The position numbers and the translations under genes were made by a program. 64,000 nucleotides of DNA, taken from positions 3,044,973 through 3,108,972 of the forward strand of contig NZ_PDJD01000001.1 in NCBI RefSeq assembly GCF_002563925.1, read 5' to 3'. How positions within the stretch are numbered: the stretch's first letter is position 1; each line of letters starts with the position of its first letter. Below the pieces are notes generated by a model. That model ran no database searches, was not told where the DNA came from, and worked only from the letters and a program-made list of their open reading frames with translations. Source of the DNA: Serinibacter salmoneus (GTDB lineage Bacteria > Actinomycetota > Actinomycetes > Actinomycetales > Beutenbergiaceae). Shown here one piece after another: positions 9,815-60,108 of this stretch.

Positions 9815-10477
9815 TCAGTCGTCGGTGAGGGTGAGGTGCACCCCGCCGACGAGCGCCGCCACGATGTTGTACAGGAACGCCCCGAGGGCGGACAGCGCCG
9901 TCAACAGGGCCACGTTGATGATCGCGAAGATCGTGGCGAGCGACATGATGTTGCGCATCCGCAGGTACTCCAGCACGGTGCCGAACTGCGCCATCGCGTC
10001 GAGGTCGGTCACCAGGGACTCCAGGTCCGTGAACACGCCCATCGCGTTGAGAACCTGCCACGCCACCACGGTCGCCACCACCATGACGATCCCGGCGGCC
10101 ACACTCAGCAGGAAGCCGAGCTTCATCACCGACCACGGGTCCACACGGGAGACGGACAGTCGCACCCGGCGCGCGGCGCCGGTGCTCCGCGGCGGCGGGC
10201 TCGGTTGCGTCTGTGCGGGTGCAGCGGAGCCACCGGAGGACTCGACGCGCGAACCCTGAGGCGGGATCGAGGGCGGATCCTCCTGGGCCGGCGACGCCGT
10301 GGCCGCCCAGGTCTCCTCGTTCGCCTTGCCGCTGGGTGCGCTGGGCGCCTCGCCGGACTCCTCGTCGCTGGGCACCTCGCGGCTCGGTGCCGTACCACTG
10401 CCGGCCGGGATCTTGACGGAGGTGCGCATCACAGGACGCACCGTGTTCTGGTCGTCCCCGCCTGTCGGCTCGCTCAT
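9815..10477 (-). CDS. DUF3566 membrane protein
   Basis: The product has 220 residues. The first ~110 are a disordered Pro/Ser/Glu-rich cytoplasmic segment. Two membrane helices follow ([20 protein letters not shown] and the region [20 protein letters not shown]), separated by an extracytoplasmic helix. This is the DUF3566 arrangement found immediately downstream of gyrA in Actinobacteria. Its function is unknown, though cell-division links have been proposed for relatives. ATG 10477 overlaps the gyrA stop by four bases (ATGA), so translation is probably coupled to gyrA. Confidence 0.9.
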
Positions 10478-13104
10478 GACGTCTCTTCCTCGTTCGGTGA
10501 CCCACCCTCATCGGGAGTGGCCGTAGCCTCCGACGCTACGGTATCGCCGTCCGCCGCCTCGACCTGGGCTGCGGCCTGCGCTGCCTCCTCCACGGAATCC
10601 TCACCGGTGCCACGCTCACCGAGGGCGACCGCGATGATCCGGTCACCGTTGTCGGGCTTGGCGAAGGTGACGCCCTGGGTGTTGCGGCCGGTGATACCGA
10701 CCTCCCCGACGGCGGAGCGCACCACCTTGCCGCGCTCCATGATCACGAGCACCTCGTCGTCCGGGTCGGCGACCAGGGCCCCGACCAGGGCGCCGCGGTC
10801 CTCGGTGACCTTGGCGACCTTGATGCCGTAGCCGCCTCGGCCCTGGATGCGGTACTCGCTCACCAGGGTGCGCTTGGCGAAGCCGCCGTCGGTCACCGTG
10901 AACAGGGTGGCGTCGTCGTGCACCACGTCCATCGAGAGCAGCTCATCGTCCTCGCGGAACTTCATCCCCGTCACCCCGGAGGTGCTGCGGGACATGGGCC
11001 GCAGGGCCTCGTCCGTGGCGGTGAACCGGATGGACTGCCCGAACCGGGATACCAACAGCAGATCCTGATCCGCGTTCACGAGCCGGGCGGCCACCACCTC
11101 GTCGATCTCGCCCGACTCATCGGTGCGCAGGTTGATGGCGATCACGCCCGCGGTGCGGGAGGAGTCGTACTCCGCCAGGCGGGTCTTCTTCACCAGACCG
11201 CGCTTGGTCGCCAGCACCAGGTACTCGGCCTGCGTGTAGTCCCGCAGCGCGAGCACGCTCGCAACCTCCTCACCCGGCTGGAAGGCCAGCAGGTTGGCGA
11301 TGTGCTGCCCCTTGGAGTCGCGGCCACCCTCGGGCAGCTCGTACCCCTTGAGCCGGTACACCCGCCCCAGGTTGGTGAACACCAGCAGCCAGTTGTGCGT
11401 GGTGGTCACCATGAAGGTGCTGACCACGTCGTCCCCGCGCAGACTTGCGCCGCGCACACCCTTACCGCCCCGCCTCTGCGCGCGGTAGTTGTCGGTACGG
11501 GTGCGCTTGACGTATCCACCGCGGGTCATCGTCACCACGATGTCCTCGACAGGGATGAGGTCCTCGACGTTCATCTCGCCGTCGAAGGGCAGGATCGTGG
11601 AGCGGCGTTCGTCCCCGAACTTCTCCACGATCGCCGCGAGCTCCTCCGAGACGATCGTGCGCTGCCGCGCCGGGGTGGCGAGGATGGACTGGTAGTCCGT
11701 GATCTGCGCCTCGAGCTTGTCGTGGTCGTCGATGATCCGTTGCCGCTCCAACGCCGCGAGGCGCCGCAGCTGCATGTCCAGGATGGCGGTCGCCTGGATC
11801 TCGTCGATTCCCAGCAACGCCATCAAGCCACCGCGGGCCTCCTCGGCCGAGGGGGAACGCCGGATCAGCGCGATCACCTCGTCCAGGGCATCCAGCGCCT
11901 TGAGCAGGCCGCGCAGGATGTGGATGCGCTTCTCGGCCTCGTCCAGCAGGTACTGGGTGCGCCGGACGATGACCTCGATCTGGTGGTCCACCCAGTGCCG
12001 GATGAACGCGTCCAGGCTCAGCGTGCGGGGCACACCGTCCACCAGCGCCAACATGTTCGCGCCGAAGGTGTCCTGCAGCTGGGTGTGCTTGTAGAGGTTG
12101 TTCAGTACCACCTTGGCCACGGCGTCGCGCTTGAGCACGATGACGAGGCGCTGACCGGCGCGACCGGAGGTCTCATCACGCAGGTCGGCGATGCCGGCGA
12201 TCTTGCCGTCGCGGACCAGTTCGGCGATCTTCGCGGCGAGCCGATCGGGGTTGACCTGGTACGGCAACTCGGTGACCACGAGGCACTGGCGGTTCTGGAT
12301 CTCCTCGACCTCCACCACGGCGCGCATCGTGATCGAGCCACGGCCGGTGCGGTAGGCGTCCTCGATACCGCGCACCCCGAGTATCTGGGCACCGGTGGGG
12401 AAGTCCGGTCCCTTGATCCGCTGCAGCAGCGCGGCGAGCAGCTCGGAGTTGCTCGCGTCCGGGTTCTCCAGGAACCACTGCGCACCGGCAGCCACCTCGC
12501 GCAGATTGTGCGGCGGGATGTTCGTCGCCATACCCACGGCGATGCCGGCGCTGCCGTTGACCAGCAGATTGGGGTACCGGGCGGGCAGGACCAGCGGCTC
12601 GCGGGTGCGGCCGTCGTAGTTGTCCCCGAAGTCCACCGTGTTCTTGTCGATGTCGCGGACCATCTCCATGGCCAGCGGGGCGAGCTTGCACTCGGTGTAC
12701 CGGGGGGCGGCGGCCTGATCATCACCGGCGGAGCCGAAGTTGCCCTGCCCCGTCACCAGTGGATAGCGCATCACCCAGGGCTGCACGAGCCGCACGAGGG
12801 TGTCGTAGATCGCGCTGTCGCCGTGCGGGTGGTAGTTCCCCATCACCTCGCCCACCACGCGGGTGCACTTGGAGAAGGAGGAGTCGGGGCGGTAGCCGCC
12901 GTCGAACATGGCGTACAGCACGCGGCGGTGCACCGGCTTGAGGCCGTCGCGCACCTCCGGGAGCGCGCGCCCCACGATCACGCTCATCGCGTAGTCGAGG
13001 TAGGAGCGCTGCATCTCCAACTGCAGGTCGACCTGCTCGACGCGGCCGCCGAACGCGGCACCCTCGGGCACCACGGGCTGGTTGTCGTCTGGAGGCTGAG
13101 TCAC
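10474..13104 (-). CDS. gyrA: DNA gyrase subunit A
   Basis: The 876-residue product carries the breakage-reunion domain with catalytic tyrosine 136 in AAPRYTECK and the C-terminal beta-pinwheel with GyrA box QRRGGKG. The C-terminal tail is acidic and disordered. The quinolone-resistance region reads [10 protein letters not shown] (residues 92-101) with Ser97 and Asp101, so the usual fluoroquinolone-resistance substitutions are absent. With GyrB it introduces negative supercoils. GTG 13104 has AGGA upstream. It lies 65 bp after gyrB and overlaps the DUF3566 gene, forming an operon transcribed away from oriC. Confidence 0.98.
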
Positions 13105-27589: not shown

Positions 27590-29103
27590 ACCGCCGAGCG
27601 GGGACCTCAGCGGCGAGGTGGCGGGTGCTGGTTCGGCCGCGGCGATGGTCCCTCCAGGCACGCTTGGTGACGACGACGGTTCTCATGGTGACGGGAGTAC
27701 TGATCGCGACAGGGCTGGCCACTGGCGCGGTACTCGGTGGGATCCTTCAGGAGAACCTTGCCGCACGGGTGCAGCAGGCTTCCGGCCAGGCGTCTGCCCG
27801 GGTGATGGGGCTGGAGGGCGGCGCACCCGGTGCCACGAGTGCTTCCGCCGCTCTGGAGGAGGGGGGCCTCCTGGCAGGCGCGTTGCTGGTGGTGTGGAGC
27901 CCCGATGGTGAGGTCAGCGGCGCGTACGCGGATGATGGGCGCACGGTTGTCCCGCTGTCGGACCAGCAGGTCGGCAGCGTGGTGGAGTCTGAGCTCGGGC
28001 CGACCGGCGGGACCATTGAGATACCGGGGCTCGGTGCGTACCGGGTGGCCGCTCGCCCAGCGGCCGGTCACATCGTGGTAGCGGGTCTGCCCGATTCCGA
28101 GGTCACCGACACCGTCCGCGCGATTGCCGCAGCCGCGGCCGTGGTTACCGGAATCGGGCTGGTGGCCCTTGCGTTGGTGGTCGGTGGGGTGATCAGGCAC
28201 TCGCTCGCCCCGCTACGCTCGGTCGTCACGACTGCCGAACGGGTGGCCCGTCAACCCCTTGCCACCGGGACGGTGGCGATCACGGACCGCGTTCCCGAAC
28301 GTGGTCTGGACGCCGACACCGAGGTGGGGCGGGTGGGGATGGCCCTGAATCTCCTGCTGGATCACGTCGACTCCTCGCTGTCGGCCCGCGCCGACAACGA
28401 GGAACGAATGCGTCGATTCGTGGCGGACGCCAGCCATGAGTTGCGGACCCCCCTCGCATCGATCAGGGGATTCTCCGAGCTGGGACTGAGAGCTCTCCGG
28501 GATCAGGGGCCAACGGAGGCAACGAACCAGACCGCGGAATCACTGACTCGGATCGAGTCACAGTCCAAACGCATGACCGCGCTGGTTGAGGACCTCTTGT
28601 TGCTGGCACGCCTTGACGAGGGGCGGGAACTGAGCCTGGAGCGGGTTGATCTTGTACGACTGGCCGTCGAGTGCGTCGTGGATGCCAGGCCCGTAGGGAC
28701 GGAGCATCACTGGCGTTTGGAGGTGCCGGAGCACGCTCTGGAGGTTCTTGCGGACGCGTCAAGAATCAGTCAAGTTATGACCAATCTGGTGGCGAACGCA
28801 CGAATCCACACACCGCCCGGGACGACGGTGGTGGTAACAGTGGCGGACATCGGCACCGGCGTCGAGATCCGTGTACAGGACGATGGCCCGGGTGTGGAGC
28901 CTCAGATGGTGGACAGGGTGTTCGAGCGGTTCGCAAGGGCTGATGCCTCCAGGACACGTCGCACTGGGGGTACCGGCCTCGGCCTCTCGATCGCTGCGGC
29001 AATAGTGGAGGCACACCAGGGCAGGATCAGCCTGGACAGTCGGCCGGGGTGCACGACCTTCACTGTGTGGCTGCCGAACGGACCACTGGATCGCACTGAA
29101 TAG
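27586..29103 (+). CDS. Sensor histidine kinase
   Basis: The 505-residue kinase has two membrane helices (about residues 27-52 and 172-198) flanking an extracytoplasmic sensor domain of roughly 120 residues. A HAMP domain follows (IRHSLAPLRSVVTTAERVAR), then HisKA with the phospho-acceptor His near residue 284 in ADASHELRTPLAS, and a HATPase with NLVANARIHTPPG, DDGPGVEP and TGGTGLGLSIAAAIVEAH. The GTG start overlaps the response-regulator stop, so the two are coupled. The divergent exporter is the likely regulon. Confidence 0.94.
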   Translation: MNRRAGTSAARWRVLVRPRRWSLQARLVTTTVLMVTGVLIATGLATGAVLGGILQENLAARVQQASGQASARVMGLEGGAPGATSASAALEEGGLLAGALLVVWSPDGEVSGAYADDGRTVVPLSDQQVGSVVESELGPTGGTIEIPGLGAYRVAARPAAGHIVVAGLPDSEVTDTVRAIAAAAAVVTGIGLVALALVVGGVIRHSLAPLRSVVTTAERVARQPLATGTVAITDRVPERGLDADTEVGRVGMALNLLLDHVDSSLSARADNEERMRRFVADASHELRTPLASIRGFSELGLRALRDQGPTEATNQTAESLTRIESQSKRMTALVEDLLLLARLDEGRELSLERVDLVRLAVECVVDARPVGTEHHWRLEVPEHALEVLADASRISQVMTNLVANARIHTPPGTTVVVTVADIGTGVEIRVQDDGPGVEPQMVDRVFERFARADASRTRRTGGTGLGLSIAAAIVEAHQGRISLDSRPGCTTFTVWLPNGPLDRTE

Positions 29104-49287: not shown

Positions 49288-50382
49288 TCAGCGCTCGGCG
49301 GTGCCGGCGATGAACCCCTCGACCTTCTCGCGGGCGAGCGGGTCGGGCATCTGCTCCGGCGGCGACTTCATGAAGTACGCCGAGGCGGAGGTGATCGGGC
49401 CGCCGATTCCGCGGTCCTTCGCGATCTTCGCGGCGCGCACGGCATCGATGATGATGCCGGCCGAGTTCGGGGAGTCCCACACCTCGAGCTTGTACTCCAG
49501 GTTCAGCGGCACCTCGCCGAAGGCGCGACCCTCGAGGCGCACGTACGCCCACTTGCGGTCGTCCAGCCAGGCCACGTAGTCGCTCGGGCCGATGTGCACG
49601 TTGCGGTCGGACTTCTTGCCCGAGAGAGGACCGTTGTCGATGTTCGAGGTCACGGCCTGGGTCTTGGAGAGCTTCTTGGACTCCAGTCGGTCGCGCTCGA
49701 GCATGTTCTTGAAGTCCATGTTGCCGCCCACGTTGAGCTGGTAGGTGCGGTCCAGCACCACGCCGCGTTCCTCGAACAGGCGGGCCAGCACGCGGTGGGT
49801 GATGGTGGCGCCGACCTGGGACTTGATGTCGTCGCCCACGATCGGCACGCCGGCGGCGGTGAACTTGTCGGCCCACTCCTTGGTGCCGGCGATGAAGACC
49901 GGGAGAGCGTTGACGAACGCCACACCGGCGTCGATCGCGGCCTGGGCGTAGTACTTCGCGGCGTCCTCGGAGCCGACCGGCAGGTAGCAGACCAGCACGT
50001 CGGCCTTGGCGGCCTTGAGGGCGGCGACGACGTCGACCGGCTCGTCCGTGGCCTCCTCGATGGTCTCGAGGTAGTACTTACCCAGGCCGTCCAGGGTCGG
50101 GCCGCGCTGCACGTTCACGCCGGTGGGCGGCACGTCGGCGATCTTGATGGTGTTGTTCTCGCTGGCCACGATGGCGGCCGACAGGTCCTGGCCCACCTTC
50201 TTGGCGTCGACGTCGAACGCGGCGACGAACTCCAGGTCGCTCACGTGGTAGTCGCCGAACTGGACGTGCATCAATCCGGGCACGGAGTCGGCGGGGTCGG
50301 CGTTCTTGTAGAACTCCACCCCCTGCACGAGCGAGCTGGCGCAGTTACCGACACCGGCAATCGCAACGCGGATGGAACTCAT
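49288..50382 (-). CDS. ino1: Inositol-1-phosphate (myo-inositol-3-phosphate) synthase
   Basis: The 364-residue actinobacterial-type enzyme has the NAD motif [40 protein letters not shown], the catalytic lysine region [17 protein letters not shown], and [17 protein letters not shown]. It converts glucose-6-phosphate to inositol-phosphate, the precursor of mycothiol and phosphatidylinositol. ATG 50382 overlaps the padR stop by four bases, so synthesis is coupled to its presumed regulator. Confidence 0.96.
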
Positions 50383-51266: not shown

Positions 51267-53669
51267 GTGGCAGAGAAGTCCCACCGTTCCCGGCGTTCCG
51301 CCGCCGCCTCGCAATCCCGAGGCAAGGCCCGCGGCACGGCCCAGCGCAAGAAGGGCTGGAACTACCCGCGCGCCGGACTCGGCCCCGTTCGGCGGTGGCT
51401 GCCGAGTTGGCGGGTGGTGCTCGGCGTCCTGCTCACGGGGCTCGCTGCTGCCGCCGGCCTGTTCGCCTGGGCGTATGCCACCACCGATCTGCCCGAGGTG
51501 GACGAGATGGCGCTCGCGGAGTCCTCCACGATCTACTTCGCCGACGGTGAGACGGAGATGGGCACGCTCGCGGAGATCAACCGGAACGTCGTGGACACCA
51601 CCGCGTTGCCCGACTACGTCGGGGATGCGGTGGTCGCCTCCGAGGACCGCCGCTTCTACTCCAACTCCGGTATCGACCCGATCGGTATCGCGCGGGCGTT
51701 CTGGAACAACGTGACGGGCGGTAGCCAGCAGGGCGCCTCCACGCTGACCCAGCAGTACGTGGACAACTACTACCTCGGTCAGACCCAGAGCTATGCCGAC
51801 AAGGCACGCGAGGCGATCCTCGCGATCAAGGTCGAGCAGGAGATGACCAAGGACGAGATCCTCGACGCCTACCTCAACGTCATCTACTTCGGCCGCGGGG
51901 CCTACGGGATCGACGCCGCAGCCCAGGCCTACTTCGGCATCCCCGCCAGTGAACTCACCCTGTCCCAGTCCGCCCTCCTGGCGGGGATCATCCCGGCCCC
52001 CAGCGCCTGGGATCCGGCCATCAGCCCCGAGCAGGCGGAGTACCGCTGGGAGCGCACGCTGACCTTCATGCTCGAGGACGGCATGATCACGCAGCAGGAG
52101 TTCGACGACGCCACCTACCCGGAGACGATCGAGAGTGCCCGATCGGACCGGTTCGCCGGGACGAACGGCTACCTCATGCAGATGGTGATCGCCGAGCTCA
52201 CCTCCGGGGAGGAGGCGCCGTTCACCGAGGACGAACTGAACCGCCTGGGCCTGACGATCGTCTCCACCGTCGATGCGCAGTGGCAGGCCGAGGCCGTGGA
52301 GACCATCGAGGGCCAGGTGCCCGAGGATGCCCCGGAGGGCTTCAAGGCGACCCTGGTCTCCATCGATCCGGCCACCGGTGGGGTGAAGGCGCTCTACGGC
52401 GGTGAGGACTACCTGACCGAATCGCTCAACCGCGCCACCCAGGCCCGCTACCAGGGCGGCTCCACGTTCAAGCCGTTCGCGCTGATCGCGGCGCTGTCCG
52501 AGGGGATCTCCCTGGAGCAGCAGCTGCCGTCCTACACCGGCATGGATGTGGACGGGTACGTGGTGAACAACTACGACAGCATCGACCGTGGCTATGTGAA
52601 TCTCGTGGAGGGCCTGGAGTACTCCATCAACTCGACCTACGTGGCCCTGAACGCGATGGTCGGACCGGAGAACACCATGGAGACGGCCATCGCCGCGGGT
52701 CTTCCGGAGGACACCCTCGGCCTGAACGCGAACCTGTCCAACGTGCTCGGGAACGCCTCCCCGCACGCCATCGACATGGCACGCGTGTTCGCGACCTACG
52801 CCGCTCAGGGTGTGCGCCACGACACCCACATCGTGGAACGGGTCACCGACTCCGGCGGGGTCGAGCTCTACACCGGGCCCACCGAGGGTGAGCGGGTGTT
52901 CGAGGCCGATGTGATGGCCGATGCGACCTACGCCATGACCCAGGTGGTCGAGGTCGGGACCGGGCGTACCGCGAGCGCGCTCGGCCGTCCGGTGGCGGGC
53001 AAGACCGGCTCGGCGAACGAGTACCGGGGGTCCTCGTTCGGGGGCTACATCCCGCAACTGGCCACCGTGGTGGCCGCCTATCAGACCGGGCCCGACGGCG
53101 AGGAGGTGCCGATCGATCCGTTCGGTGGCTACTCCGTGCTCGCCGGGGGATCGCTTCCGACCGATCTGTGGCTCTACTACATGACGCAGGTGACCGAGGG
53201 AATGCCGATCGAGGACTTCCCGCCTCGGGCGAACGTGGGCGAGATCGCCACCCCGGCCGCACCCGAGACAACCGAGCCGGAAATGGTTGCGGTGCCGGAC
53301 GTGGCGGGCATGAGCGAGGAGGCGGCGCGGGCGGCGATCATCGCGGCCGGGTTCTCCGTGGCCGCCGGCAGCGAGCCGAGCGAGACGGTCGAGGAGGGCA
53401 TCGTGATCCGCGCCGAACCGGGCGGGGAGGCCGAGGCCGGGTCCTTGATCACGATCGTGGTCTCCACGGGGCCGGCCGAGCCCACCGAGGAGCCGACGAC
53501 GCCGGAGCCGACCACGCCGGAGCCGACCACGCCGGAGCCGACCACGCCGGAACCGACCACGCCGGAACCGACCACACCGCAGCCCTCGCCCTCGGTAACG
53601 GCCACACCGAGTCCGCAGCCGACGGAGGGCGGCGGGCAGCCGTCGCCGCCGTCCACACCGGAGAACTGA
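51267..53669 (+). CDS. Class A penicillin-binding protein with PASTA domain
   Basis: The 800-residue bifunctional enzyme has a basic cytoplasmic start and one membrane helix (residues ~49-71). A GT51 glycosyltransferase domain carries the catalytic Glu126 in ASEDRRFYSNSGIDPIG and GGSQQGASTLTQQYVDNYY. The transpeptidase has SxxK in GGSTFKPFALIAAL (near residue 398), SxN in EYSINSTYVAL and KTG in VAGKTGSANEYRG. One PASTA domain (about 672-735) and a Thr/Pro/Glu repeat tail close it. It polymerises and cross-links peptidoglycan. GTG 51267 was chosen because upstream codons have no envelope-protein character. Confidence 0.94.
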   Translation: MAEKSHRSRRSAAASQSRGKARGTAQRKKGWNYPRAGLGPVRRWLPSWRVVLGVLLTGLAAAAGLFAWAYATTDLPEVDEMALAESSTIYFADGETEMGTLAEINRNVVDTTALPDYVGDAVVASEDRRFYSNSGIDPIGIARAFWNNVTGGSQQGASTLTQQYVDNYYLGQTQSYADKAREAILAIKVEQEMTKDEILDAYLNVIYFGRGAYGIDAAAQAYFGIPASELTLSQSALLAGIIPAPSAWDPAISPEQAEYRWERTLTFMLEDGMITQQEFDDATYPETIESARSDRFAGTNGYLMQMVIAELTSGEEAPFTEDELNRLGLTIVSTVDAQWQAEAVETIEGQVPEDAPEGFKATLVSIDPATGGVKALYGGEDYLTESLNRATQARYQGGSTFKPFALIAALSEGISLEQQLPSYTGMDVDGYVVNNYDSIDRGYVNLVEGLEYSINSTYVALNAMVGPENTMETAIAAGLPEDTLGLNANLSNVLGNASPHAIDMARVFATYAAQGVRHDTHIVERVTDSGGVELYTGPTEGERVFEADVMADATYAMTQVVEVGTGRTASALGRPVAGKTGSANEYRGSSFGGYIPQLATVVAAYQTGPDGEEVPIDPFGGYSVLAGGSLPTDLWLYYMTQVTEGMPIEDFPPRANVGEIATPAAPETTEPEMVAVPDVAGMSEEAARAAIIAAGFSVAAGSEPSETVEEGIVIRAEPGGEAEAGSLITIVVSTGPAEPTEEPTTPEPTTPEPTTPEPTTPEPTTPEPTTPQPSPSVTATPSPQPTEGGGQPSPPSTPEN
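53493..53582 (+). repeat. Six tandem 15-bp repeats in the PBP tail
   Basis: Six near-identical 15-bp units (CCGACCACGCCGGAG type) encode repeated PTTPE units. Internal units differ by single bases. Copy number is likely to vary between strains. The tail probably crosses the cell wall as an extended spacer. Confidence 0.85.
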
Positions 53670-53772: not shown

Positions 53773-53815
53773 CCTCCTGTCACGGAAAGTCCGTGACCGC
53801 CCAGTCCAAAGGAGG
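53773..53815 (+). promoter_or_regulatory. Structured rpsF leader that can sequester the ribosome-binding site
   Basis: CCTCCT (53773-53778) is exactly complementary to the rpsF Shine-Dalgarno AGGAGG (53810-53815). Between them an 8-bp hairpin forms: GTCACGGA (53779-53786) with TCCGTGAC (53790-53797), followed by an ACCG stretch. This resembles the S6:S18 autoregulatory leader found before rpsF in many bacteria. Assignment to that family is inference. Confidence 0.45.
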
Positions 53816-53826
53816 TGGGTATCCGC

Positions 53827-54117
53827 ATGCGTCAGTACGAATTGATGCTGATCCTCGAGCCCGAGGTCGATGAGCGCACGGTTGCACCGTCGCTCGAGAA
53901 GCTTCTGTCCGTGATCACCCAGGGTGGCGGCTCCGTCGACAAGATCGACATCTGGGGCAAGCGCCGCCTGGCATACGAGATCGCCAAGCGCTCCGAGGGC
54001 CTGTACGCCGTGGTCAACATGACCGCGACACCGGCCCTCGCCCAGGAGCTCGACCGCCAGCTGGGCCTCAATGAGGCCGTGCTGCGCACGAAGCTGCTGC
54101 GCGCCGACGCCAACTGA
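53827..54117 (+). CDS. rpsF: 30S ribosomal protein S6
   Basis: The 96-residue protein begins [19 protein letters not shown] and contains [20 protein letters not shown], both hallmark S6 segments. It binds 16S rRNA with S18, encoded two genes downstream. AAAGGAGGT lies ten bases before ATG 53827. It heads rpsF–ssb–rpsR–rplI, and its leader may be the operon's control point. Confidence 0.97.
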
Positions 54118-54150
54118 CCTCACACACCACCGACCGAGCAGGAGCACTCC

Positions 54151-54693
54151 ATGGCAGGCGAGACCGTCATCACCGTGATCGGGAACCTCACGGCCGACCC
54201 GGAGCTGCGGTTCACCCCCTCCGGCGCAGCCGTTGCGAACTTCACGATCGCTTCGACCCCGCGCACGTTCGACCGTCAGTCGAACGAGTGGAAGGACGGG
54301 GAGACCCTGTTCATGCGCTGCTCGATCTGGCGCGAGGCGGCCGAGAACGTCGCGGAGTCCCTGACCAAGGGGATGCGCGTCGTGGCTCAGGGGCGTCTCG
54401 TCCAGCGGTCCTTCGAGACCCGCGAGGGTGAGAAGCGCACCGTGGTCGAGCTCCAGGTGGACGAGATCGGTCCGTCGCTGCGCTACGCCTCCGCCAAGGT
54501 CACCCGCGCCCAGCGCGGCGGTGGCGGCGGCGGTGGTTTCAGCGGTGGCGGCGGCTACGGCGATTCCGGCGCTCGCTCCGGTGGGGGCGGCGGCTACGGC
54601 GACTCGGGTCAGCGCGGCGGGGGCTCTGCTCCCCGCAACGACGACCCGTGGGCTGCCGGGGCCGGCTCCTACTCCGACGAGCCGCCGTTCTAG
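54151..54693 (+). CDS. ssb: Single-stranded DNA-binding protein
   Basis: The 180-residue protein has an OB fold ([40 protein letters not shown]), a Gly-rich linker with two repeats (GGGYGDSG type), and the acidic SSB C-terminal tip DEPPF that recruits replication and repair proteins. The start has AGCAGGAG upstream. It lies in the ribosomal-protein operon as in most Actinobacteria. Confidence 0.97.
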
Positions 54694-54726
54694 ATCACAG
54701 ACTGAAGAACGCAGAAGGAGAACATC

Positions 54727-54966
54727 ATGGCGAAGCCCGCACTTCGCAAGCCCAAGAAGAAGGTCGGTCCGGTCAAGACCGCCAAGATCGAGGGCGAGAT
54801 CGACTACAAGGACACCGTCATGCTGCGGAAGTTCATCTCGGACCGCGGCAAGATCCGCGCGCGCCGCGTGACCGGTGTCTCCGTGCAGGATCAGCGCAAG
54901 ATCGCTCGGGCCGTGAAGAACGCCCGTGAGATGGCGCTGCTGCCCTACTCGAGCTCCGCTCGCTGA
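54727..54966 (+). CDS. rpsR: 30S ribosomal protein S18
   Basis: The 79-residue basic protein contains the S18 core [20 protein letters not shown], the rRNA-binding [20 protein letters not shown], and the closing ALLPYSSS. It has no zinc-binding cysteines, so it is the zinc-independent paralogue form. AGAAGGAG lies upstream of ATG 54727. It pairs with S6. Confidence 0.97.
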
Positions 54967-54982
54967 TCGGGAGGCACGAACG

Positions 54983-55432
54983 ATGACGAAGCTCATCCTC
55001 ACGCACGAGGTCTCCGGCCTCGGCGCCCCGGGTGACGTGGTGGAGGTCAAGGACGGGTACGCCCGCAACTACCTCGTGCCGCGTGGCATGGCCACCACCT
55101 GGACCAAGGGTGCCGCCAAGCAGGTCGAGGCGATCCAGGCCGCCCGCGCGAAGAAGGCGCACGACTCGGTCGAGGCCGCTGCCGCGGTCCGCGACAAGAT
55201 CGAGGCGACCCGCTTCACCGTGACGGCCAACTCCGGCGCCGGTGGCCGCCTGTTCGGCACCGTCACCAGCAAGGACATCGCTGCCGCGGTGGCCGAGCAG
55301 GGTGGCCCCTCGATCGACCGCCGGTCCATCGAGATCAAGCAGCACATCAAGACGACCGGCGCTCACATGGTCGTGGTGCACCTCCACGAGGGCATCACCG
55401 CCAAGCTGGCGCTGGACGTCGTCGCCGCCTGA
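54983..55432 (+). CDS. rplI: 50S ribosomal protein L9
   Basis: The 149-residue protein has the L9 N-domain with TKLILTHEVSGLGAPGDVVE and VKDGYARNYLVPRGMA, a long connecting helix, and a C-domain with GRLFGTVTSKDIAAAVAEQ. ATG 54983 has GGGAGG upstream. It is the last gene of the operon, and a perfect terminator follows. Confidence 0.97.
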   Translation: MTKLILTHEVSGLGAPGDVVEVKDGYARNYLVPRGMATTWTKGAAKQVEAIQAARAKKAHDSVEAAAAVRDKIEATRFTVTANSGAGGRLFGTVTSKDIAAAVAEQGGPSIDRRSIEIKQHIKTTGAHMVVVHLHEGITAKLALDVVAA

Positions 55433-55667: not shown

Positions 55668-56657
55668 ATGCAGATACTCAGAGGTCCGGGGGGGCTTGTG
55701 ATCGCCGCAGGAATTGGCGCGTTGCTGTCGTGCGCCTTGCTCGCATACGCATTTTCGTGGCGCGTTCGTGGCGCGATTCAGAATCGAATTGCACATGCCG
55801 ACGCCGTGTGGGGCGTCGTCATCGCCGGGGCCGCGGCCGCGTGCCTCATCTGTCTGGCGGTCCTGGCCATCGCGGCCACCTCCGGTACCTGGACCACCCG
55901 CCCCACCGCATACCTCGGGCTCCTGGTGCTCGTGTTCATCAGCGCGATCCCGGTGGTACTGGTCGAGTTCGGGCTGCGCCCGGGCGCTGCCGCCGACACC
56001 GCGCCGGTGCGGGCGACGCAGGGCCCGGAGGCGTCCCGCCTGCTGGTGGTCTCCGCGCATCCCGACGATCTCGAACTGGCCTGTGGCGGGACGGTGGCGC
56101 GCCTCGCGGCGCAGGGCAGCCACGTGAAGGTGCTCGTGATGAGCTCCGGCACGGTCGGCGGCGATCCGGCCGCCCGGCGCCGGGAGGCGGTCGCCGGCGC
56201 CGCGGTCCTCGGGGTGCACGACGTGACCGTGCTGGACTTTGCCGACACCCGCCTGGCCGACCACTCGAGGGAGCTGATCGAGGCGATCGAGGCGGTCGCC
56301 GTCGCGTTCCGCCCCACGGTCGTGCTCACCCACTCCGAGCACGATCAGCACCAGGACCATCACGCCGTCAATCGCGCGGTGGTGCGCGCGTGCCGCCAGG
56401 CGCCGACAATCCTCGGATTCGAGTCGCCGTCGGCCACCCGCGCCTTCAACCCCTCCGTCTTCGTCGACATCGACGGATTCCTGGACCTCAAGGTGCGCGC
56501 CGTCGCCAGTCACGTGGACCAGGCCGGGAAGCCGTACATGACGGCGGCCCGCGTGCGGGGTGTCGCCGCATTCCGGGGGACGCAGGCCAAACGCGTCCAC
56601 GCCGAGGGATTCGAACCCGTTCGCTACACCACCAGCCTCCAGGAGGCGTCGCTGTGA
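55668..56657 (+). CDS. Membrane-anchored PIG-L/LmbE-family deacetylase
   Basis: The 329-residue product has three N-terminal membrane helices (about residues 8-29, 47-70 and 81-102), then a PIG-L N-acetylglucosamine deacetylase domain. That domain has the zinc motif VVSAHPDDLELACGGT (residues ~127-142) and HSEHDQHQDHHAV. The basic loop after helix 1 (WRVRGAIQNR) suggests the catalytic domain faces the cytoplasm. PIG-L enzymes remove acetyl groups from GlcNAc conjugates such as mycothiol intermediates. MshB and Mca lack such membrane helices, so another substrate is likely. The stop overlaps the ATP-grasp start. Confidence 0.85.
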   Translation: MQILRGPGGLVIAAGIGALLSCALLAYAFSWRVRGAIQNRIAHADAVWGVVIAGAAAACLICLAVLAIAATSGTWTTRPTAYLGLLVLVFISAIPVVLVEFGLRPGAAADTAPVRATQGPEASRLLVVSAHPDDLELACGGTVARLAAQGSHVKVLVMSSGTVGGDPAARRREAVAGAAVLGVHDVTVLDFADTRLADHSRELIEAIEAVAVAFRPTVVLTHSEHDQHQDHHAVNRAVVRACRQAPTILGFESPSATRAFNPSVFVDIDGFLDLKVRAVASHVDQAGKPYMTAARVRGVAAFRGTQAKRVHAEGFEPVRYTTSLQEASL

Positions 56658-57637
56658 CCATCACCGCCCCCACCCGTCCCGACACCCTGGCGGACCCGGC
56701 CCGGGTCCCCACCGTCGTCGTCACCGGCGCGAAGGGTCCGGCCGGCCGGGCGCTGGCCCGGCAGTTCGAGGTGCTCCGCGCAGCGGGCCTGGCGTTGCGG
56801 ACCGTGGGAGCCGACATGCTCCCCGGCGCCGACCCGGCCTGGGACTCCACCGCGGTGCTGCCCGCGGTGCACGACGCCGAGTACCTGGCGAGCCTGCGCC
56901 GGCTCCTGGAGCGGGTCGAGGCCGATCTCCTGATCCCCACGGTCGCCGAGGAGCTGCCCATCCTCGCCCAGACCGGGCAGTCGCTCGCACCCGACTCCTC
57001 CTGCGCCGTCGTCCTCTCGGGGGCCGGTCCGAGCGCGGCCTGTGCGGACAAGTTGCTGACGATGTGGGCCCTGGACGCCGCCGGGGTGTCCATCCCGCGC
57101 TACCGCGCCATCACGGTGGGGGATGACGCCGCCGGCCTGATCGCGTGGGCGGAGGGACCCGTGGTGGTCAAGCCCCGGGTCTCGCGAGGCGGCCGCGGTG
57201 TGCACCTCGTGGAGCACCGCGACGACCCGGTCCACACCGCCGGTTCCTGGATCGCGCAGTCCTTCGCCCCCGGCACGGAGTACTGCCCGCAGGTCTACCG
57301 CTCCCCGCACACGGGCGAGGTGAGAGTGGTCGTCGTCGAGAAGACCGAACTCAAGCAGGGGCGCGTCGGCAACGCCGCCCACGCCCGCAGGCTCCCCGAG
57401 GGTGAGGCGGTGGATGTCGCCTGGCTCGCCGAGTGCGCGGTGACCGCGCTGGACCTGGTGGGGCCGGTGGACCTCGACATCCGCCGCGACGAGCAGGGGG
57501 TGCCGGTGGTGCTCGAGGTGAACGCGCGGTTCGGCGCGAACTCCCACCTCGCTCCCGAACTGCTGCATGCGGTGCTGCGCGACTGGGACCTCACGTCCGC
57601 GGTCGCCCGTCCGGGCGCCACCGGCGTCCACGCGTGA
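56654..57637 (+). CDS. ATP-grasp ligase (CarB-like)
   Basis: The 327-residue product has a Rossmann-like pre-ATP-grasp domain (TVVVTGAKGPAGRALARQFE), the ATP-binding GPVVVKPRVSRGGRGVHLVE, and the metal-binding strand VVLEVNARFGANSHLAPELL. ATP-grasp enzymes form acyl-phosphates and join carboxylates to amines or thiols. A natural hypothesis is ligation to the amine freed by the adjacent deacetylase. GTG 56654 overlaps the PIG-L stop by four bases and has AGGAGG eight bases upstream. It closely abuts the GT2 gene. Confidence 0.85.
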   Translation: MTITAPTRPDTLADPARVPTVVVTGAKGPAGRALARQFEVLRAAGLALRTVGADMLPGADPAWDSTAVLPAVHDAEYLASLRRLLERVEADLLIPTVAEELPILAQTGQSLAPDSSCAVVLSGAGPSAACADKLLTMWALDAAGVSIPRYRAITVGDDAAGLIAWAEGPVVVKPRVSRGGRGVHLVEHRDDPVHTAGSWIAQSFAPGTEYCPQVYRSPHTGEVRVVVVEKTELKQGRVGNAAHARRLPEGEAVDVAWLAECAVTALDLVGPVDLDIRRDEQGVPVVLEVNARFGANSHLAPELLHAVLRDWDLTSAVARPGATGVHA

Positions 57638-57649
57638 GGGGAGCGGGCG

Positions 57650-58918
57650 CTGCCATCCTGGGCTGAGACCACCCTGATCGTCCTGGGCAGCATCATCCTG
57701 CTGCTCGGGCTCCTGAAGGTGGCCATGGGGCCGCTCGCGGTCTGGTTCGAGGTGCTGGCCGCGCGTGCCCGCCGGCGCGCGCGCCACCGGTCGATCTTCG
57801 CCGAGCCGCCGAGCGTGAGCGTGGTGGTGCCGGGGTACAACGAGGGCCGCGTGCTGCGCGCCTGCGTCGCCTCTCTGCTGACCAGCAGTTACCCCGATCT
57901 CGAGGTGATCCTCGTGGACGACGGTTCCAGCGACGACACCCTCGCCGTGATGCGCTCGATGGAGCACGACCCGCGGGTGCGGGTCCTCACCAAGCCCAAC
58001 GGCGGCAAGGGTTCGGCCCTGAACCTCGGGATCGCGCACGCCCGTGGCGAGGTGCTCGTGCTCAGCGACTCCGACGGCGTGTTCGGACGCCGCACGATCC
58101 ACCACCTGATCGCGGGCTTCTCCGATCCCGCGATCGGGGCGGTGTGCGGCGATGACCGACCGGTGAACCTCGACCGGGTGCAGACCCGCTTCCTCTCCCT
58201 CATCAGTCACCTCGGGACCGGGCTCATGCGCCGGGGCCTGCACCTGCTGCGCTGCCTCCCGGTGGTCTCCGGCAACATCGGGGCCTTCCGGCGCGACGTG
58301 TTGGAGCAGACCGGGCCCCTGGACGAGGACACCCTCGGGGAGGACCTCGAACTGACGTGGCGGGTCTACCGCGCCGGGTACCGGGTGGCGTTCGCCCCCC
58401 GTGCGCTCGTGTACGCCGAGAGCCCCTCCACCGTGCGGGGACTGTGGCGGCAGCGGGTGAGGTGGACCCGCGGCCTGGTGCAGACCGTCACCACGCACCG
58501 CGACATGGTCGGCAACCCCCGGTTCGGGATCTTCGGCCCCTCCCTGGTGCTGGTGGTCCTGACCGGGCTGGTGGTGCCGGTCCTGCAGGTCATCACCCTC
58601 GCCCTGGTCGCCTGGGCGGTGGCGTCGGGGGACACGACGGCGCTGGGCAGCTCCGCCTGGGACGTGCTGCTGTGGCTCGGGCTGCCGGTGGCGCTGGTCA
58701 TGCTGGTGCTCGCGATCGCGCTGAACGGAGCCTGGCGGGACCTGCGATTCGTGCCGACCCTGCTGCTGTGGCCGGTGTACTCCGTGGTGCTCACCGCCGT
58801 CACCTGGCACGCCCTCGCGCTGGAGATCAAGGGCGCCCCACGCGCCTGGAACAAGCTCGAGCGCACGGGTGTGGTCTCCATCAGGGACGAGGACCGCGTG
58901 CTCGTCGAGGCATCCTGA
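57650..58918 (+). CDS. Processive family-2 glycosyltransferase (PgaC/hyaluronan-synthase-like)
   Basis: The GT-A domain has VVPGYNEGRVLRACVASLL, LVDDGSSDDT, the DxD-like SDSDG, the TLGEDLELTWRVYRAGY catalytic region and QRVRW (a variant of the QxxRW processivity motif). C-terminal helices follow (VLVVLTGLVVPVLQVITLAL, VLLWLGLPVALVMLVLAIAL). An N-terminal helix (TTLIVLGSIILLLGLLKVAM) is encoded upstream of the first GTG (57719). The only plausible start before it is CTG 57650, with GAGGGGAG six bases upstream. GTG 57719 lacks any ribosome-binding site. It probably polymerises a hexosamine-containing polymer. Confidence 0.87.
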   Translation: MPSWAETTLIVLGSIILLLGLLKVAMGPLAVWFEVLAARARRRARHRSIFAEPPSVSVVVPGYNEGRVLRACVASLLTSSYPDLEVILVDDGSSDDTLAVMRSMEHDPRVRVLTKPNGGKGSALNLGIAHARGEVLVLSDSDGVFGRRTIHHLIAGFSDPAIGAVCGDDRPVNLDRVQTRFLSLISHLGTGLMRRGLHLLRCLPVVSGNIGAFRRDVLEQTGPLDEDTLGEDLELTWRVYRAGYRVAFAPRALVYAESPSTVRGLWRQRVRWTRGLVQTVTTHRDMVGNPRFGIFGPSLVLVVLTGLVVPVLQVITLALVAWAVASGDTTALGSSAWDVLLWLGLPVALVMLVLAIALNGAWRDLRFVPTLLLWPVYSVVLTAVTWHALALEIKGAPRAWNKLERTGVVSIRDEDRVLVEAS

Positions 58919-60108
58919 GCGCGCGACGGCGCGGGGGCTGGGCCGTGCTCGTGGCCACCGGACTCGCACTGGCCACCGCCTGCACCCCGCCCGACGACGC
59001 CACGCACCGGGCCGTGAGCCTCGGCTTCGAGGACGTGGCCGGGCAGGACCGACCCGACCTGACGCAGATCGCCGACGAACTCGCCGCGGTCGAGGCCACC
59101 GCCGTGCACCTGGCCGCCGGGCGGGTGGAGTGGACCACCTTCCCGTGGCCGGACCACCCCGAGGCATGGTCGGCGGCCGTCTCCGAGGCGATCGAGGAGG
59201 GCGGGTCCGGGGACCTGCTCGGGGAGGCGATCACGCACCTCGCCGGCGGGGGCCTCGAGACGCAGGACGCCTCACCCGGCGGACCCGAGCGCGAGGTGGT
59301 CCTCACGATCGACGCCCTGGTGCCCAGCCTGATCGCGCAGGATGCGACCCTTGCCGGGGTTACCGCAAACGGCGAGGCCTCCGACCTGTTCGCCTCCGCC
59401 GCAGCGTTGGCCGAGGGTGAGGTGGGCGACCGGCTCGTGGCGATGGCCGAGCACCTCGCACGCACCTACCGGCCCGAGGCGATCACCGTGACCGAGCTGA
59501 TGTTCGACGACGCCACCTTCTCCGAGCAGGACCTCGCCCTGTACCGGCGCATGACGGGCGAGTCGGACTGGCCGCGCGACGACGGCGGCGCGATCGACGA
59601 GGAGGCGGCGGAGATCGGCGCGTGGCGCTCGCAGGTGCTGGCTGACCTGCTCACGCGGATGCGGGAGCGGGTGGCCCCGCACGGGGTGGCGCTCGCCGTC
59701 GACGTGCGGGCGGACTGGGAGGATCCCGTGCGCGGGCGCGCCCAGAGCGGGCACGACCTGACCATCCTGGGCGACGCCGTCGACCGCTTCATCCTGTGGA
59801 ACTACCCGGGGCTGGTGGGACGCACCGGGGCGGAGTCCGCCGACCTCACGGCGGGACTGGCGGCCGGCGGCGTCGATCCCGATCGAGTGACGGTCTCGGT
59901 GGGGCTCTGGGCGGCGCAGGGGGAGGGCGCCGGCGTGGACGCCGACCTGGCCTCGAGCCAGAGCGGCGATGGTGTGCTGCCGGTGGCGCAGTTCGCCGAC
60001 GCCGTGGCGGCCTCCGCCACCTCGGGGGTGACCGCGGTGGCCGTCACCCCGCGCTCGCTGATGACGCCCGGGCACTGGGAGGCGCTGCGGGGGCTCTGGG
60101 CTCCGTAG
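58915..60108 (+). CDS. Lipoprotein with glycosidase-like TIM-barrel features
   Basis: Starting at CTG 58915, which overlaps the GT2 stop (CTGA), the product has 397 residues. Its lipoprotein signal is SARRRGGWAVLVATGLALAT with the lipidated Cys at 23. The mature part has alternating helices and strands, including ITVTELMFDDATFSEQDLAL, VALAVDVRADWEDPVRGR and DRFILWNYPGLVGRTGAES. This resembles glycoside-hydrolase TIM barrels of the PgaB C-terminal type, with acidic residues at strand ends. No conventional start gives an intact signal. GTG 58945 would leave a 12-residue signal without basic residues. Family assignment is tentative. Confidence 0.7.
   Translation: MSARRRGGWAVLVATGLALATACTPPDDATHRAVSLGFEDVAGQDRPDLTQIADELAAVEATAVHLAAGRVEWTTFPWPDHPEAWSAAVSEAIEEGGSGDLLGEAITHLAGGGLETQDASPGGPEREVVLTIDALVPSLIAQDATLAGVTANGEASDLFASAAALAEGEVGDRLVAMAEHLARTYRPEAITVTELMFDDATFSEQDLALYRRMTGESDWPRDDGGAIDEEAAEIGAWRSQVLADLLTRMRERVAPHGVALAVDVRADWEDPVRGRAQSGHDLTILGDAVDRFILWNYPGLVGRTGAESADLTAGLAAGGVDPDRVTVSVGLWAAQGEGAGVDADLASSQSGDGVLPVAQFADAVAASATSGVTAVAVTPRSLMTPGHWEALRGLWAP

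What the first reader, a model, noticed from the sequence alone, without database searches (positions are those of the whole stretch)
55668..60108. Four-gene operon: membrane PIG-L deacetylase, ATP-grasp ligase, processive GT2 and glycosidase-like lipoprotein
Seen: four co-directional genes, three of the junctions overlapping or nearly so, behind one good promoter. Known: PgaB/PgaC-type systems combine a GT2 with a deacetylase and a glycosidase domain to make partially deacetylated poly-GlcNAc. An ATP-grasp ligase is not part of those systems. Inference: a hexosamine polymer or lipid-linked sugar is deacetylated, and the free amine is then acylated or aminoacylated by the ATP-grasp enzyme.
Basis: partly seen in the sequence, partly recalled or inferred. 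Interest (0 to 1): 0.65.

Follow-up and report, generated by a model that had tools for sequence, protein, structure and literature searches.

The report
Re-wired amino-sugar polymer operon
Four neighbouring genes that recur together in many soil actinobacteria look like a surface-sugar factory related to the biofilm polymer PNAG, but with the deacetylating step apparently moved inside the cell, an added ligase that could re-decorate the exposed amine, and, in sister systems, a phosphorylation switch fused to the deacetylase.

Summary
The operon is real and is a recurring unit: PIG-L deacetylase (three predicted N-terminal membrane helices), ATP-grasp ligase, PgaC-like GT2 and a lipoprotein, head to tail. 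Of 31 distinct loci that carry the lipoprotein, 29 hold all four genes. In this genome the cassette sits between rplI and an ABC transporter, a place where 5 of 7 relatives have the flanks without it. The deacetylase is therefore very probably cytoplasmic, unlike PgaB/IcaB, so the amine would be made, and perhaps re-acylated by the ATP-grasp enzyme, on a cytoplasmic precursor before polymerisation and export. Substrates are untested. The 'good promoter' was not confirmed. New variant of a known kind; interest 0.62.

The parts
55668..56657 (+). Membrane-anchored PIG-L (LmbE-like) deacetylase, 329 aa; three hydrophobic segments in residues 1-110, PIG-L domain 126-242 with AHPDD and HQDHH metal motifs
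56654..57637 (+). ATP-grasp ligase (ATP-grasp_3; PRK12767-like), 327 aa; catalytic E288/N290 kept; model nearest to 2pn1, PylC and L-amino-acid ligases
57650..58918 (+). PgaC-like processive-type GT2 with membrane helices; DDG, DSDG, GEDLE and QRVRW motifs; probable CTG start (first ATG/GTG/TTG: GTG 57719)
57637..57643 (+). AGGGGAG, likely ribosome-binding site for the GT2 (by eye)
58915..60108 (+). Lipoprotein with a TIM barrel of PgaB GH153-like fold; probable CTG start overlapping the GT2 stop (or GTG 58945); lipobox LATAC read by eye; strand-4 end T170-E171 (model numbering) invariant in 31 of 31

Best explanation
A synthase-dependent amino-sugar polymer system of monoderm actinobacteria. 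The GT2 polymerises an activated hexosamine (most likely UDP-GlcNAc-derived) and passes the chain through the membrane. The PIG-L enzyme removes an N-acetyl group on the cytoplasmic side, from the nucleotide sugar or another cytoplasmic or inner-leaflet precursor, and the ATP-grasp enzyme couples a carboxylate, probably an amino acid, to the freed amine. The surface-anchored GH153-like lipoprotein trims or releases the exported chain; it is an accessory, since 5 of 11 core genomes lack it. In the sister type the deacetylase is gated by a histidine kinase through its fused receiver domain. Shown by computation: gene unit, families, intact motifs, predicted folds, receiver fusion and kinase. Inferred: location of PIG-L in the window's type, polymer as product, sugar identity, order of steps, the ligase's substrates.
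For: All four genes in 29 of 31 distinct lipoprotein loci; correlated distance matrices among the four proteins in 28 loci, r 0.81-0.94, 0 of 2000 permutations as high (shared ancestry alone would also give correlation). Cassette present between rplI and FtsX/ABC here, absent there in 5 of 7 relatives with those flanks, while one of them (G008) carries the cassette a megabase away. GT2 motifs DDGS, DxDG, GEDLE, QRVRW in 35 of 35 type A/B loci; PgaC_IcaA best NCBIfam model. Lipoprotein model pLDDT 92.4; top hits PgaB/BpsB hydrolase domain, Foldseek E 5.5e-11, Z 28.0, 3.2 A over 321 residues. ATP-grasp model nearest to 2pn1 (Z 26.5), PylC (23.0); L-amino-acid ligases 3vot and 4wd3 rank 2 and 3 in Foldseek. 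Receiver-PIG-L fusion in 15 of 15 type B loci (14 distinct) and 3 of 3 type C; kinase in 15 of 15 type B. In the ATP-grasp-only loci two of three have lost E288 or N290, as expected if the ligase's job depends on its partners.
Against: No chemistry was tested. Profile-sequence comparison of the lipoprotein family with E. coli PgaB is not significant (E 0.16), GHL13/PF14883 does not ring in this genome, and non-PgaB TIM barrels follow closely (Cwp19 Z 25.9, GH42 24.0). The GT2 fails the PgaC_IcaA equivalog cut-off, and its best solved relative is an archaeal GT2, 6yv7, so lipid glycosylation is possible. The type C operon has a PHP-domain gene where types A/B have none, not explained by the model. 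Cytoplasmic UDP-GlcNAc deacetylation by PIG-L has no precedent that I found (0 papers).
Confidence: 0.48

Rival explanations
1. Glycolipid pathway: the GT2 puts a single GlcNAc on a membrane lipid on the inner leaflet, PIG-L deacetylates it (as in GPI and hopanoid-glucosamine synthesis), the ATP-grasp enzyme aminoacylates the glucosamine, and the lipoprotein acts on the flipped glycolipid or is unrelated to it.
For: PIG-L enzymes with known substrates act on GlcNAc-lipids or small conjugates (recalled; solved relatives BshB, MshB and teicoplanin deacetylase); membrane anchoring of PIG-L in type A; GT2 also matches HpnI (57 bits) and its best solved relative is 6yv7.
Against: Processive-type QRVRW motif in 35 of 35, and a GH153-like long-groove hydrolase partner; best family model PgaC_IcaA.
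Confidence: 0.27
2. PgaB/IcaB-like order: the polymer is exported as poly-GlcNAc and deacetylated outside by PIG-L, with the ATP-grasp enzyme serving something else.
For: Overall resemblance to the pga and ica systems; window PIG-L is membrane-anchored.
Against: In 14 of 29 loci the PIG-L is a receiver-domain fusion with no membrane segment of note and its own kinase; in the window's type the charge pattern read by eye is N-out/C-in; ATP needed by the ligase is not available outside.
Confidence: 0.08
3. Small-molecule pathway of mycothiol type (sugar transfer, PIG-L deacetylation, amino-acid ligation) that happens to share an operon with a surface hydrolase.
For: Same logic of steps as MshA/MshB/MshC (recalled); ATP-grasp model near amino-acid ligases.
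Against: Membrane GT2 of the PgaC/hyaluronan/cellulose synthase kind and an exported glycosidase-like partner with correlated divergence.
Confidence: 0.1

Closest known systems
pgaABCD (PNAG synthesis, E. coli/Bordetella)
   Same: PgaC-like GT2; GH153-fold lipoprotein-type hydrolase; a GlcNAc deacetylase in the unit.
   Different: Deacetylase is PIG-L, not CE4, and predicted cytoplasmic; hydrolase is not fused to a deacetylase; ATP-grasp ligase added; no PgaA or PgaD seen in the operon; GT2 below the PgaC_IcaA cut-off. The survey PMC7112194 (passages seen) says the hydrolase domain is exclusive to Gram-negative pga operons, and then names two Gram-positive dual-domain exceptions; it mentions neither ATP-grasp nor PIG-L.
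icaADBC (staphylococcal PNAG)
   Same: Monoderm setting, GT2 of the IcaA kind.
   Different: No CE4 IcaB-type or IcaC-type gene in the four-gene unit; hydrolase, PIG-L and ATP-grasp instead. Ica gene contents recalled and from passages.
Mycothiol/bacillithiol pathways (MshA-MshB-MshC; BshA-B-C)
   Same: Glycosyl transfer, PIG-L deacetylation, then ligation of an amino acid to the amine (recalled). PIG-L here matches BshB1 (83.5 bits, cut-off 182.5) best in NCBIfam.
   Different: Membrane GT2, ATP-grasp ligase instead of the MshC-type ligase, and an exported hydrolase.
PRK12767-type ATP-grasp proteins (2pn1) and L-amino-acid ligases/PylC
   Same: Fold and catalytic E..N motif.
   Different: Acceptor unknown; fixed partnership with PIG-L and GT2.

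Membership tests
PNAG system (pga/ica) | GT2 over the PgaC_IcaA equivalog cut-off | tested here: not met
   179.5 bits against 422.3; still the best NCBIfam model, and 33% identity to E. coli PgaC over 231 aa
PNAG system (pga/ica) | CE4 (NodB-type) extracytoplasmic deacetylase | tested here: not met
   none of the four proteins matches a CE4 model; the deacetylase is PIG-L. Only the operon's genes were scanned, not the genome
GH153 (PgaB hydrolase domain) | sequence match to GHL13/PF14883 | tested here: not met
   no match for P0003 at E<=1; 0 of 24 family genomes incl. own, while the E. coli control rings; profile against E. coli PgaB E 0.16
GH153 (PgaB hydrolase domain) | closest fold is the PgaB C-terminal domain | tested here: met
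   Foldseek ranks 1-5; VIA Z 26.0-28.0, next Cwp19 25.9 and GH42 24.0, so the margin is small
GH153 (PgaB hydrolase domain) | acid at the end of strand 4 (D474 in B. bronchiseptica PgaB) and DxD in strand 1 (D326/D328) | tested here: inconclusive
   invariant E171 follows strand 166-170 in 31 of 31; strand 1 reads VSLGF against IDLDY in E. coli PgaB. Matched by strand order, not by a residue-level superposition
PIG-L deacetylases | PIG-L domain over Pfam cut-off with AHPDD and HxDH metal motifs | tested here: met
   104.4 bits against 28.2; motifs in 38 of 39 PIG-L reads, the other (L065) cut by a contig end
ATP-grasp ligases | ATP-grasp domain over cut-off with E..N metal ligands | tested here: met
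   ATP-grasp_3 49.6 bits against 23.2; E288 and N290 in 34 of 36 aligned, all 33 that stand with PIG-L and GT2 genes or with GT2
Response regulators with enzyme output (sister type B/C) | receiver domain with phospho-acceptor Asp, Thr and Lys next to a histidine kinase | tested here: met
   Pfam REC and HisKA/HATPase in L035; conserved D, TA and KP in 18 of 18; kinase in 15 of 15 type B
Any of these | measured chemistry or product | not testable with these tools
   -

The most novel reading that the evidence does not exclude
A third way to make a modified poly-hexosamine: N-acetyl removal and re-acylation (aminoacylation) of the building block happen in the cytoplasm before polymerisation, with the deacetylase itself serving as the phosphorylation-gated output of a two-component system in the sister type, so that a sensor sets polymer chemistry directly, without a transcription step. 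The PgaB-like hydrolase lacks the strand-1 DxD that in PgaB is proposed to hold a charged glucosamine, as expected if the amine is capped.
Probability: 0.3. Interest if true: 0.83.

Novelty: new variant of a known kind. Interest (0 to 1): 0.62.

Why it matters
If right, it shows a PNAG-like pathway re-ordered so that amine chemistry is set inside the cell, a new role for ATP-grasp ligases, and a response regulator whose output is a sugar deacetylase. It would name a candidate matrix polymer for many soil actinobacteria (Arthrobacter, Cellulomonas, Isoptericola, Pseudoclavibacter, Mumia) whose biofilm polymers are little known, and give an unassigned glycosidase-like family a place.

Tried and rejected
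Sequence-only assignment of the lipoprotein failed: no Pfam/NCBIfam match; PDB by sequence gave only chance-level hits; of 31 members scanned, GHL10 in 3 (best E 7.6e-4), GHL6 and DUF4015 in 1 each; profile against E. coli PgaB not significant.

Rejected: chance neighbourhood; fixed species-wide housekeeping role (lipoprotein in 3 of 149 relatives, 1 of 396 phylum genomes at E<=1e-8, and full-length in 6 of 396 order genomes; three further short matches at E 9e-5 to 8e-4 were dropped). The ATP-grasp search gave 119 of 396 genomes at E<=0.001, most of them weak; I used the 14 at 35% identity or more and E<=3.3e-36 as the near family. Of these, 11 have PIG-L and GT2 beside it; G327, G103 and G340 do not, and have no such GT2 at E<=1e-20 anywhere. 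More distant ATP-grasp loci L047 and L050 gave no PIG-L or GT2 match nearby.

Literature: searches. No listed paper held PIG-L, ATP-grasp and response regulator together (49 papers hold two of three; 20 listed, terms-first order), none held PIG-L with ATP-grasp, glycosyltransferase and operon. Open-licence library only. PMC5933820, PMC13366581 and PMC7112194 were seen as passages only. An ATP-grasp amidoligase survey of 2009 that I recall is not held.
Full report
Observation. Four genes run head to tail at 55668-60108. Pfam gives PIG-L (E 8.3e-30), ATP-grasp_3 (6.1e-13) and Glyco_tranf_2_3 (3.4e-33), and nothing for the fourth protein, a lipoprotein by its N-terminus (lipobox read by eye). PIG-L and ATP-grasp overlap by 4 bases. 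The other junctions are tight only if the GT2 and the lipoprotein start at CTG (57650, 58915); with ordinary starts the gaps are 81 and 26 bases. The promoter scan found nothing.

A unit. The best ATP-grasp matches in 396 order genomes led to 18 fetched regions. tblastn with the four window proteins showed the same gene set in relatives. A profile of six lipoproteins found 27 named loci. All four genes are within the fetched stretch in 29. L071, a 7.3-kb contig, lacks PIG-L and has a second lipoprotein copy; L072 has the lipoprotein alone. In L065 the PIG-L is cut by the contig end. Distance matrices of the four proteins over 28 loci correlate (r 0.81-0.94; 0 of 2000 permutations reach the observed value). 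Shared descent alone would also give correlation, so this shows co-inheritance and not function.

Position. In 5 of 7 relatives fetched around rplI (G009, G008, G013, G017, G004) the order is rplI, about 0.8-1.7 kb, FtsX permease, ABC ATPase, MATE, with none of the four genes; the other two (G006, G002) have rplI and MATE but no FtsX/ABC match there. In the window 4.7 kb with the four genes fill that gap. G008 has the four genes elsewhere on the same contig.

Two main types. Type A (15 of 29, window included): PIG-L, ATP-grasp, GT2, lipoprotein on one strand. Type B (14 of 29): ATP-grasp, GT2, lipoprotein on one strand and, facing them, PIG-L followed by a histidine kinase. The type B PIG-L of L035 is a receiver-PIG-L fusion by Pfam (REC 14-122, PIG-L 142-255). 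Of 39 PIG-L reads, counting the two duplicate genomes twice, 18 match the L035 receiver region (15 type B, 3 type C) and the 21 type A reads (five of them without lipoprotein) do not; of those 21, 20 have two or three hydrophobic segments before the PIG-L domain and L065 cannot be judged. Two type B reads have one segment just over the threshold inside the receiver. The phospho-acceptor Asp, the TA and the KP are the same in all 18 receivers. The kinase is found in 15 of 15 type B loci and in none of 20 type A loci within the fetched flanks; in the window the only match is a kinase at 28363-29049, 27 kb away (35% identity). Type C: the window's own genome has a paralogous operon, kinase, receiver-PIG-L, ATP-grasp, PHP protein, GT2 (G000:C1 2.822-2.829 Mb, locus L048), also seen in L049 and L051. 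In 246 class genomes the full receiver-PIG-L fusion was found in 5, G000 included; in three of the other four the ATP-grasp is next to it, while L101 shows none within its 4 kb.

Meaning for location. A receiver-domain fusion with a cytoplasmic kinase partner must be cytoplasmic. In type A the charges around the first helix (RVR...NR after it in the window, by eye) put the PIG-L domain inside as well. ATP-grasp needs cytoplasmic ATP. So both amine steps act before export, unlike PgaB and IcaB.

The lipoprotein. With 31 sequences the model has pLDDT 92.4, pTM 0.91. Foldseek's first five PDB hits are PgaB/BpsB hydrolase domains (E 5.5e-11 to 2.6e-10), then Cwp19 and GH20 enzymes; VIA gives Z 28.0 (4p7l, 3.2 A over 321), 26.0 for BpsB, 25.9 for Cwp19, 24.0 for a GH42. 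PMC5933820 (passages) reports that PgaB itself resembles GH42, GH35, GH14, GH18 and GH20 with Z 19-24, and that D474 is the probable catalytic acid, with D326, D328 and D364 proposed to bind the charged glucosamine. In the lipoprotein an invariant Glu (E171, 31 of 31) follows strand 4, and strand 1 reads VSLGF where E. coli PgaB has IDLDY. This matching is by strand order only. Sequence methods do not see the link.

The GT2 and the ligase. The GT2 keeps DDGS, DxDG, GEDLE and QRVRW in 35 of 35 type A/B loci; PgaC_IcaA is its best NCBIfam model but below cut-off; solved relatives include 6yv7, chondroitin, hyaluronan and cellulose synthases. The ATP-grasp model (pLDDT 91.5) is nearest to 2pn1, whose function I do not know, then PylC in VIA and L-amino-acid ligases in Foldseek. 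E288 and N290 are kept in 34 of 36; the two departures, L045 and L046, are ATP-grasp loci without PIG-L and GT2, while the third such locus, L041, keeps them.

Core and accessory. Among 396 order genomes 11 have the PIG-L/ATP-grasp/GT2 core and 6 of these also the lipoprotein. Neighbours differ: LPXTG-type Ig proteins upstream in L038 and an Ig protein in L040, sigma/zinc-finger proteins upstream in L039, L041 and L045.

Reading. Best supported: a PNAG-like synthase system whose building block is deacetylated and re-acylated in the cytoplasm. That the four genes form a unit I hold at about 0.95; the polymer reading at 0.48; a glycolipid at 0.27. No substrate was tested. Searches of the open-licence library found no description of this gene set.

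Noticed in passing
locus L048 (G000:C1 about 2822423-2828990), same genome as the window: Paralogous operon: histidine kinase, receiver-PIG-L fusion, ATP-grasp, PHP-domain protein, GT2. The PHP protein's role is unexplained.
   Followed up: partly
window 57650 and 58915: Two consecutive genes appear to start at CTG, one overlapping the previous stop as CTGA; unusual and worth proteomic N-terminus mapping.
   Followed up: no
L041 (7881-8828), L045 (7767-8849), L046 (7169-8227): Related ATP-grasp genes without PIG-L and GT2; in L041 and L045 they follow a sigma-70/zinc-finger fusion-like protein; L045 and L046 have lost a metal-binding residue, perhaps turned into a non-catalytic role.
   Followed up: partly
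L038:4830-6170, L040:5768-6886: Big_8/collagen-binding-like Ig proteins directly upstream of the PIG-L gene; a possible surface partner.
   Followed up: no
L077, L079, L080, L082 around 10400-11400: A second ATP-grasp relative (38-40% identity) about 2.5 kb beyond the lipoprotein in four Arthrobacter loci.
   Followed up: no
L103, L104: PIG-L next to a GT2 with no ATP-grasp match in the 3.6 kb held, in other families of the class.
   Followed up: no
window 49288-50382 (-), 51288-53669 (+), 53815-55432 (+): Ordinary neighbours: myo-inositol-1-phosphate synthase, PASTA penicillin-binding protein, rpsF, ssb, rplI.
   Followed up: partly
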